Source: Sulfuricurvum sp. | Lineage (GTDB): Bacteria > Campylobacterota > Campylobacteria > Campylobacterales > Sulfurimonadaceae | Length of the DNA: 64,000 nt | Direction of reading: 5' to 3' | Assembly: GCA_028718525.1 (NCBI GenBank) | Contig: JAQULP010000009.1 | Coordinates: 1 to 64,000, forward strand | Part shown: piece by piece, positions 14,089-15,859 of the stretch | How positions within the stretch are numbered: position 1 is the first letter of the stretch | How the letters are laid out: each line of letters starts with the position of its first letter | Notes under the pieces: model-generated | The model's database searches: none | Seen by the model: only the letters and a program-made list of their open reading frames with translations | What the model was told of the DNA's origin: nothing | Made by a program: the position numbers and the translations under genes

Positions 14089-14092
14089 GATT

Positions 14093-14121
14093 CAATTGTC
14101 GGGATTGATTTCCCACAATTG
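14093..14121 (+). terminator. Candidate rho-independent terminator of carA
   Basis: CAATTGTCGGGA and TCCCACAATTG form a stem with one bulged base and a six-base loop, followed by the T-rich ATCATTTATTTTCC. It begins five bases after the carA stop and separates carA from the cco operon. Confidence 0.55.
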
Positions 14122-14292
14122 ATCATTTATTTTCCCTGAGTGTTACTTTTCTTCTCCTAATTCTGTAAATAACCTTAAAAATATCGTTAAGTTCGAATTG
14201 GCTGAAAAACATTTATACATTTAAGATTATTCAAATAGTGCGATTGCTATCATTAGAGTGTCTAATAGCCTACTTTTGTTACAAAAGTGTTA

Positions 14293-14338
14293 AGGGCACC
14301 TCTTGTTTCATAAAATTTTGTGACGCAAGAGGTGCCCT
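14293..14338. promoter_or_regulatory. 46-bp near-perfect palindrome upstream of ccoN
   Basis: Two 13-base arms, AGGGCACCTCTTG (14293-14305) and CAAGAGGTGCCCT (14326-14338), pair perfectly. The 20 bases between them are themselves nearly palindromic (TCATAAAATTTTGTGA). The whole 46 bases are thus symmetric about AAAATTTT. It lies 40 bases before the ccoN ATG, which has its own AAGGAGG ribosome site. It may be a large operator for a dimeric regulator of the oxidase operon, or a leader hairpin or attenuator. No T-tract follows, so a simple terminator is less likely. The rest of the carA-ccoN gap is AT-rich, with no gene seen. Confidence 0.6.
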
Positions 14339-14377
14339 AATAGGCTCTTATGCTTTGAATCTTTAAGGAGGTCGTAA

Positions 14378-15859
14378 ATGGAGAATCGTCCATTGGAGTA
14401 TGATTACACGGTTGCAAAATGGTTTATGCTCGCAACTGTTGTTCTCGGTATTGTCGGGATGCTTGTCGGCGTTATTTTGGCGTGGCAAATGGCGTTTCCA
14501 GGTGTAAATTTATTGGCGGGAGAGGGCTTGGCTGAGTACACAAACTTCAGTCGTCTTCGTCCGTTGCATACTGACTCAGTAATCTTCGGATTTACCCTCA
14601 GCGGTATCTGGGCTACATGGTACTATGTCGGTCAACGTGTATTAAAAGTGTCTATGGCGGAATCAAAATTTTTGATGTTTCTTGCTAAATTGCATTTTGC
14701 TATTTACATGGTGGTGGTAGTTGCCGTTGTCGGTTCATTATTGCTCGGTATTTCAACCGGTAAAGAGTATGCAGATTTTGAATGGCCGATCGATATCGCT
14801 GTTGTTGTGGTATGGGTTATTTGGGGTATGTCTATTTTCGGTTTGATCGGTATTCGCCGTGAAAAATCGCTGTACATCTCAATTTGGTATTACATTGCTA
14901 CTTTCTTGGGTATTGCTATGTTGTATCTTTTCAACAATATGGAAATCCCAACATATTTCGCATCAGGCGGAATCGGTGCATGGTACCACTCTGTTTCAAT
15001 GTACTCAGGAACCAATGATGCGTTGGTACAATGGTGGTATGGACACAACGCGGTTGCGTTCGGATTCACTGTACCTATCGTAGCCATGATCTACTACTTC
15101 CTTCCAAAAGAATCAGGTCAAGCGGTTTATTCTTATAAATTGTCTCTTCTTGCGTTCTGGGGATTGATGTTTGTTTATCTTTGGGCAGGCGGACACCACT
15201 TGATCTACTCTACAGTACCGGATTGGATGCAAACAATGGGTTCTGTATTCTCAGTTGTATTGATTCTCCCATCATGGGGTTCTGCGATCAATATGCTCTT
15301 GACTATGAAGGGTGAATGGCAACAAGTAGCGGCAAGCCCGTTGATCAAATTCATGATCTTGGCTTCTACGTTCTACATGTTCTCAACTCTTGAAGGTCCG
15401 ATCCAAGCGATTAAATCAGTTAATGCATTGGCTCACTTTACAGACTGGATCGTCGGTCACGTACATGATGGTGTTCTCGGTTGGGTTGCATTCATGATTA
15501 TGGCAGCACTTTTCCACATGGCACCGCGTGTATTCAAACGTGAGATCTATTCTAAATCATTGATGAACACACAATTCTGGATCCAAACATTGGGTGTTGT
15601 ATTGTATTTCACATCTATGTGGATTGCTGGTATCACACAAGGTATGATGTGGCGTGCGCATGATGAATTCGGTAACTTGGCTTACTCATTCATCGATACG
15701 GTTGCCGTATTGCACCCTTACTTCACAATCCGTGCGGTTGGTGGTACATTGTATCTCGTAGGTATGTTCTTGTTCGCGTACAACATGTACAAAACAATGA
15801 CAAGCTCTCGCCGTGTTGAAGAGAGTGAACTTCAAAACGCATCGCCGATGGGCGCATAA
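14378..15859 (+). CDS. ccoN: CcoN, cbb3-type cytochrome c oxidase catalytic subunit I
   Basis: A 493-residue polytopic haem-copper oxidase subunit. Visible ligand regions include RPLHTDSVIFGF (low-spin haem), WWYGHNAVAF and AGGHHLIYS (CuB and neighbouring histidines), and VGHVHDGVLGW (high-spin haem b3). It reduces oxygen to water with high affinity, the terminal oxidase for microaerobic growth, and pumps protons. A strong ribosome site, AAGGAGG, precedes the ATG. It heads a tight operon ccoN-O-Q-P followed by four small membrane-protein genes. Confidence 0.97.
   Translation: MENRPLEYDYTVAKWFMLATVVLGIVGMLVGVILAWQMAFPGVNLLAGEGLAEYTNFSRLRPLHTDSVIFGFTLSGIWATWYYVGQRVLKVSMAESKFLMFLAKLHFAIYMVVVVAVVGSLLLGISTGKEYADFEWPIDIAVVVVWVIWGMSIFGLIGIRREKSLYISIWYYIATFLGIAMLYLFNNMEIPTYFASGGIGAWYHSVSMYSGTNDALVQWWYGHNAVAFGFTVPIVAMIYYFLPKESGQAVYSYKLSLLAFWGLMFVYLWAGGHHLIYSTVPDWMQTMGSVFSVVLILPSWGSAINMLLTMKGEWQQVAASPLIKFMILASTFYMFSTLEGPIQAIKSVNALAHFTDWIVGHVHDGVLGWVAFMIMAALFHMAPRVFKREIYSKSLMNTQFWIQTLGVVLYFTSMWIAGITQGMMWRAHDEFGNLAYSFIDTVAVLHPYFTIRAVGGTLYLVGMFLFAYNMYKTMTSSRRVEESELQNASPMGA

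What the first reader, a model, noticed from the sequence alone, without database searches (positions are those of the whole stretch)
14293..14338. 46-bp near-palindrome in the leader of the cbb3 oxidase operon
The 13-base perfect arms and an internal near-palindrome give symmetry over 46 bases, 40 bases before ccoN. This is larger than common Fnr or response-regulator sites and is not followed by T's. It could be a double operator or a switchable leader RNA controlling the main terminal oxidase.
Basis: seen in the sequence. Interest (0 to 1): 0.55.

Follow-up and report, generated by a model that had tools for sequence, protein, structure and literature searches.

The report
Folded RNA leader of ccoN oxidase
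The palindrome is one arm of a folded RNA at the start of the message for a bacterium's main oxygen-using enzyme; the base of that fold is kept across a family of sulfur bacteria, and in some relatives a second oxidase operon carries a hairpin that could pair with the message and switch it off.

Summary
The 46-bp dyad at 14293-14338 is real: it is the best dyad in the window, and 0 of 60 shuffles reach it. The evidence says it works as RNA, not as a DNA operator. The organism is a Sulfuricurvum. The dyad is hairpin P3 of a three-way-junction 5' UTR of ccoN: closing stem P1 (14263-14272/14341-14350), P2 and P3. In 24 long-form relatives 9 of 18 P3 pairs show changes on both sides, and G.U exceeds A.C 46 to 13. 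P3 itself is lineage-specific: 24 of 40 genus leaders have it, 11 are short, 4 odd, 1 unlike. P1 reaches other genera under a hypervariable top, followed by a near-invariant translation-start region. A conserved TATNAT hexamer puts the predicted transcript start about 3 nt before P1. I favour a 5'-terminal stem that protects and presents the mRNA, under CemR/HP1021-type control (TGTTACA at 14277). No transcript data were available. Unexpected: in 11 of 41 Sulfuricurvum genomes, not this one, a bd-oxidase-like operon carries a hairpin whose loop is an 18-nt perfect complement of the ccoN Shine-Dalgarno region, so an RNA-mediated oxidase switch is possible.

The parts
14220..14235 (+). TTTAAGATTATTCAAA, conserved block upstream of the -10 (role unknown; regulator or promoter upstream element)
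   Evidence: Leader alignment of 24 loci and family leaders
14248..14253 (+). TATCAT, inferred -10 hexamer; predicted transcript start about 14258-14261
   Evidence: TANNAT-like hexamer 11-12 nt before the P1 anchor in 66 of 82 leaders with the anchor; start not mapped
14263..14272 (+). P1, 5' strand of the closing stem
   Evidence: Minimum-energy fold; 37 of 39 genus leaders keep AGCC/GGCU; 94.7% paired with 19 double changes in 30 non-genus leaders
14273..14287 (+). P2, ACTTTTG-TTA-CAAAAG hairpin or DNA palindrome
   Evidence: 4 of 6 pairs with a change on both sides in A1, each time from single genomes
14277..14294 (+). TGTTACA-N4-TGTTAAG, candidate HP1021/CemR box and a degenerate second copy
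   Evidence: TGTTACA in 37 of 40 genus leaders; repeated upstream of the -10 in some relatives and near another gene; box TGTTWCW from PMC6052347 passages
14293..14338 (+).
14341..14350 (+). P1, 3' strand of the closing stem
14352..14374 (+). GCTTTGAATCTTTAAGGAGGTCG, near-invariant translation-initiation region with the Shine-Dalgarno AAGGAGG (14365-14371); 14357-14374 is the stretch matched by the antisense loop in relatives
14378..15859 (+). ccoN, cbb3 oxidase subunit I
   Evidence: Pfam COX1

Best explanation
The palindrome is hairpin P3 of a structured 5' UTR of the ccoN mRNA. Transcription is inferred to start near 14258-14261 from a conserved -10, so stem P1 lies at the extreme 5' end of the message. 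P1 closes a three-way junction with P2 and P3 and ends just before a near-invariant translation-initiation region. Supported by comparative evidence: the RNA fold, its coding-strand polarity, the family-wide P1 and the conserved initiation region. Inferred, not shown: the 5'-terminal stem protects the mRNA from 5'-end-dependent decay and keeps structure away from the Shine-Dalgarno, so that ccoN is translated strongly; P3 is a lineage-specific, replaceable extension of that stem; oxygen or redox control is set mainly at the DNA level by a CemR/HP1021-type regulator at TGTTACA.
For: 24 long-form leaders: 9 of 18 P3 pairs with double-sided changes; whole structure 94.8% paired against 86.4% in shuffles (0 of 500) and 39-56% with slid partners. 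G.U against A.C cells 46 to 13. The free fold of 14260-14407 gives P1, P2 and P3. P1 in 30 non-genus leaders at one fixed register is 94.7% paired against 21-48% at shifted registers; closing stem in 32 of 36 folded non-genus leaders against 18.7 expected from shuffles. Hexamer at a fixed distance in 66 of 82. Apical part is hypervariable while P1 and the initiation region are kept.
Against: No mapped transcript start and no measurement of RNA stability or translation. P1 hardly varies inside the genus (0 of 9 pairs with double changes), so its support comes from other genera and from 30 of the 59 leaders read there; 23 of 59 did not fit the anchors and several distant ones show no obvious P1. 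G010, G022 and G055 lack the P1 core. No shuffle control was run for the -10 hexamer. The stabiliser role is inferred by analogy.
Confidence: 0.5

Rival explanations
1. The leader is a landing site for trans-acting antisense RNA: a hairpin loop encoded with a second, bd-like oxidase operon pairs with 14357-14374 and shuts ccoN translation, so that the cell swaps oxidases. Compatible with the best explanation and would add to it.
For: 18-nt perfect complement in a hairpin loop in 11 of 41 genus genomes, each behind the same kind of operon; the loop is identical where the first operon protein is only 30% identical; predicted duplexes -35 to -47 kcal/mol; perfect target in 11 of 11 element genomes against 14 of 29 others.
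Against: Absent from the held own genome. The initiation region is also conserved in species without the element. No evidence of expression; no promoter was identified. In 8 genomes the loop overlaps the predicted start of a thioredoxin gene, which could itself explain part of its conservation. The target comparison ignores common descent.
Confidence: 0.3
2. The dyad is a DNA operator (double site for a regulator).
For: Strong DNA symmetry and a likely regulator site (TGTTACA) next to it.
Against: Both arms drift together in sequence, which a fixed operator would not do; strand-biased wobble favours RNA; length varies and 16 of 40 genus leaders lack it; single copy in the held genome.
Confidence: 0.04
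3. The leader is a ligand-binding riboswitch or an RNA thermometer that opens and closes the Shine-Dalgarno.
For: Conserved flanks of P1, a near-invariant initiation region, and a weak predicted stem that pairs the Shine-Dalgarno.
Against: The part inside P1 is hypervariable, so no aptamer core is visible. The SD-pairing stem is modest (median probability 0.45; 23 of 88 leaders at 0.5 or more) and shows no double-sided change. No Rfam match.
Confidence: 0.1
4. P3 is a neutral filler: selection keeps only the promoter, the regulator box, P1 and the initiation region, and P3 persists because a tight hairpin does no harm.
For: P3 is replaced or missing in 16 of 40 genus leaders.
Against: Compensatory changes in 9 of 18 pairs show that pairing in P3 has been kept while its sequence drifted.
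Confidence: 0.2

Closest known systems
5'-terminal stabilising stem-loops such as the E. coli ompA 5' UTR (recalled, no call)
   Same: A stem at or near the 5' end, followed by an accessible ribosome-binding region.
   Different: Here the stem carries a multi-branched, hypervariable top; the transcript start is only predicted and stability is untested.
HP1021/CemR (Cj1608) regulon of Campylobacterota (PMC6052347 and PMC11334517, passages read)
   Same: TGTTACA fits the HP1021 box TGTTWCW; PMC11334517 states that CemR controls ccoN-Q in H. pylori.
   Different: Binding not tested; presence of the regulator in this genome not tested; the box lies downstream of the inferred start.
Cuckoo-type and other anti-Shine-Dalgarno-loop RNAs (recalled; one search gave listings only)
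   Same: For the element in relatives: a long stem presenting a CCUCC loop near the end of a gene.
   Different: Its complement to one mRNA is 18 nt or more and it belongs to a rival oxidase operon; it is not in the window's genome.
Intrinsic terminator or attenuator
   Same: A strong G+C-containing hairpin in a leader.
   Different: No T run follows.

Membership tests
Structured cis-acting 5' UTR RNA | Compensatory base changes that keep the fold | tested here: met
   P3; P1 outside the genus:
Structured cis-acting 5' UTR RNA | Transcribed as part of the mRNA | tested here: inconclusive
   Inferred from strand-biased wobble and a conserved upstream hexamer; no RNA data
5' stabilising stem-loop | Stem within a few nt of the mRNA 5' end | tested here: inconclusive
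   Predicted start about 3 nt before P1
5' stabilising stem-loop | Lengthens mRNA half-life | not testable with these tools
   Needs bench work
Intrinsic terminator/attenuator | Run of T after the stem | tested here: not met
   0 found
DNA operator dyad | Dyad with fixed half-site sequence in relatives | tested here: not met
   Arms drift with compensation; 16 of 40 genus leaders lack the dyad
Riboswitch | Conserved aptamer core | tested here: not met
   Hypervariable interior; no Rfam match
HP1021/CemR-controlled promoter | Box TGTTWCW near the promoter | tested here: met
   TGTTACA at 14277; 37 of 40 genus leaders
HP1021/CemR-controlled promoter | Regulator binds the site | not testable with these tools
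   Needs gel shift or ChIP
Anti-Shine-Dalgarno small RNA (element in relatives) | Loop complementary to a ribosome-binding site | tested here: met
   18 of 18 nt against ccoN in 11 of 11 element genomes
Anti-Shine-Dalgarno small RNA (element in relatives) | Expressed as an RNA that acts in trans | not testable with these tools
   No RNA data

The most novel reading that the evidence does not exclude
The ccoN leader is the receiving end of an RNA-based oxidase switch. In Sulfuricurvum species that carry a bd-like oxidase operon, that operon's own transcript contains a hairpin whose loop pairs perfectly with the ccoN initiation region, so making one oxidase silences the other. Similar anti-Shine-Dalgarno hairpins behind cytochrome c genes would extend such control to more of the respiratory chain.
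Probability: 0.3. Interest if true: 0.75.

Novelty: new member of a known kind. Interest (0 to 1): 0.5.

Why it matters
cbb3 oxidase is the main oxygen-using enzyme of these bacteria, and control of its genes in Campylobacterota has been discussed at the level of DNA-binding regulators (PMC11334517, passages). A family-wide folded leader adds an RNA layer at the entry of the operon, and the antisense loop in relatives gives an exact, directly testable pairing between two oxidase operons.

Tried and rejected
Terminator or attenuator: rejected, no T run. Known Rfam RNA: rejected, the best of 3 matches at E 0.17 is far below its gathering score. Repeated or mobile palindrome: rejected, single copy in the held genome. 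Short-form leaders: by eye several could form a small hairpin at the place of P3, but folding of the excised pieces was weak (about 0 kcal/mol), so I do not claim a conserved P3 there. Sequestration of the Shine-Dalgarno by the P3 arm: considered, not supported, because the arm letters facing it are not conserved. The leader match in G031 is a 25-nt match that reads as part of a coding sequence and is taken as chance (read by eye). In one search the anchor patterns skipped 23 of 59 non-genus leaders plus G055 and mis-set the start of a few others; skipped ones are not counted. L298 was dropped because its start was not recognised (59 of 60 kept). G015's leader is cut by a contig end and is not among the 40. 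In one search the own-genome cytochrome c locus was missed by the script and was read. The co-occurrence of element and operon is physical linkage, not independent evidence. Papers: PMC11334517, PMC6052347 and PMC10593804 were read as passages only (PMC10593804's main text gave no 'ccoN'); all others were seen only as search listings. Searches that could have shown a ccoN leader RNA or a small RNA acting on ccoN listed nothing on it; only this open-access library was searched.

Full report
What was claimed and whether it is there. The dyad at 14293-14338 is as described: 23-nt half-sites, 87% complementary, no gap, with 13 perfect outer pairs. It scores 20 of 23 against 16 for the next best in the 64-kb window, and 0 of 60 dinucleotide shuffles of the window reach 20. 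Its RNA fold has z -6.2. It has no T run, no Rfam match at gathering score and no second copy in the held own genome (the assembly is 83% complete). The gene behind it is ccoN, followed by ccoO and ccoP.

Where it comes from. One relative found (G009, contig of 420,933 bases) is the same place as a named Sulfuricurvum record (L078, JAQTTG010000003.1) and is given as of the same genus, so the window is a Sulfuricurvum. All 41 genus genomes searched match the leader.

RNA, not DNA. I read 40 genus leaders (G015 is cut by a contig end). 24 carry the long hairpin, 11 a short spacer, 4 an unrelated insert, and G055 an unlike leader. In the 24 long forms (alignment A1) P3 has 9 of 18 pairs with changes on both sides. 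For the whole structure 94.8% of cells pair, against 86.4% in 3'-letter shuffles (0 of 500 as high) and 39-56% when partners are slid. Non-Watson-Crick cells are strand-biased: 46 G.U against 13 A.C among 432 P3 cells, and 27 against 4 in the 13 basal pairs. Many of these cells share descent, so they are not independent events. A DNA operator would be expected to show neither the joint drift of both arms nor the bias.

The whole leader. The unconstrained minimum-energy fold of 14260-14407 is a three-way junction: P1 (14263-14272 with 14341-14350), P2 (14273-14287) and P3. Inside the genus P1 hardly varies (0 of 9 pairs with double changes), but it can be tested outside. I fetched 60 leaders from other genera of the family and could read 59. 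In the 30 that fit a strict anchor pattern, P1 at one fixed register is 94.7% paired, against 21-48% at six shifted registers, with 19 double changes (shuffle mean 2.1, maximum 14). Folding 36 non-genus leaders gave a closing stem in 32, with 18.7 expected from shuffles; in 39 genus leaders it was 31 against 13.8. The part above P1 ranges from a few nt to tens of nt with unrelated sequences. Against this, two genus leaders (G010, G022) lack AGCC/GGCU, G055 has no recognisable P1, and several distant family leaders show none by eye.

Promoter and regulator. A TANNAT-like hexamer (TATCAT at 14248-14253 here) lies 11-12 nt before the P1 anchor in 66 of the 82 leaders in which the anchor was found, of 99 given (no shuffle control was run). 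If it is the -10, the mRNA starts at about 14258-14261 and P1 begins within a few nt of the 5' end. TGTTACA at 14277 fits the HP1021 box TGTTWCW (PMC6052347, passages). It is present in 37 of 40 genus leaders, is repeated upstream of the -10 in some relatives, and occurs upstream of a gene whose product reads as a metal-binding protein (L200, by eye). PMC11334517 (passages) states that CemR controls ccoN-Q in H. pylori. Binding, and presence of the regulator here, were not tested.

Translation start. GCUUUGAAUCUUUAAGGAGG is near-invariant in the genus and in most of the family leaders read, more than a Shine-Dalgarno alone requires. RNAalifold proposes a weak stem that pairs the Shine-Dalgarno, but its probability is modest (median 0.45; 23 of 88 leaders at 0.5 or more).

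An unexpected partner. Searching for this initiation sequence turned up its exact antisense in the loop of another hairpin. In 11 of 41 genus genomes an 18-nt perfect complement of 14357-14374 sits in a loop on a long stem (94.7% of cells paired against 88.9% in shuffles; 17 cells changed on both sides against 6.9). In the two regions that I read in full it lies behind a two-gene operon at the same site (chemoreceptor and arsC-like genes). The first operon protein matches bd-oxidase subunit I 5doq_A (phmmer E 5.7e-6) and has a cytochrome c domain; its distant counterpart in G011 has no such match. The first operon protein is found in the same 11 genomes and in none of the other 30. In 8 genomes a thioredoxin-like gene follows, and the loop overlaps its predicted start; a CcoG/NapH-like gene comes next in the two read. 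In the other 3 the first operon protein is only 30% identical to the query, no thioredoxin gene was found, and the loop is the same. Predicted duplexes with each genome's own ccoN are -35 to -47 kcal/mol. All 11 have a perfect target, against 14 of the 29 other leaders (Fisher p 0.0026, not corrected for descent). The held own genome has neither operon nor element. A covariance search of 161 family genomes found these 11, three looser hairpins behind a cytochrome c gene (G005, G007, G055) and one weak hit (G288) that I take as chance.

Judgement. The anatomy is well supported; the function is inferred. I favour a 5'-terminal protective and presenting stem for ccoN, with P3 a replaceable extension. 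The oxidase switch is the most interesting reading that the data leave open, but it concerns relatives, not this genome.

Noticed in passing
L311 (G017), L313 (G011) and nine other relatives: A bd-oxidase-like two-gene operon with cytochrome c domains carries a hairpin whose loop is the exact antisense of the ccoN Shine-Dalgarno region.
   Followed up: partly
L366-L386, 3' of a c553-like cytochrome gene; own genome G000:C23 (L386): In most of the 21 loci looked at, a long hairpin within about 100 nt of the stop codon shows a CCUCC-type anti-Shine-Dalgarno stretch in its loop, with several different stems and loops; the own genome has one with GACCUCCUU (judged by eye).
   Followed up: partly
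window 14220-14235: TTTAAGATTNNTTAAA-like block upstream of the inferred -10, conserved in the genus and in much of the family.
   Followed up: no
L182, L183, L019 upstream of ccoN; L200: A second copy of the TTGTTACAA-N-AGTGTTAA site lies upstream of the -10 in some relatives, and one lies before a gene that reads as a metal-binding protein.
   Followed up: partly
window 14376-14395: Small predicted hairpin AAUGGA-GAAUCG-UCCAUU over the ccoN start codon; these codons are nearly invariant in the family leaders.
   Followed up: no
window 14092-14122: 11-nt inverted repeat just after carA, possibly its transcription terminator; the terminator scan did not list it.
   Followed up: no
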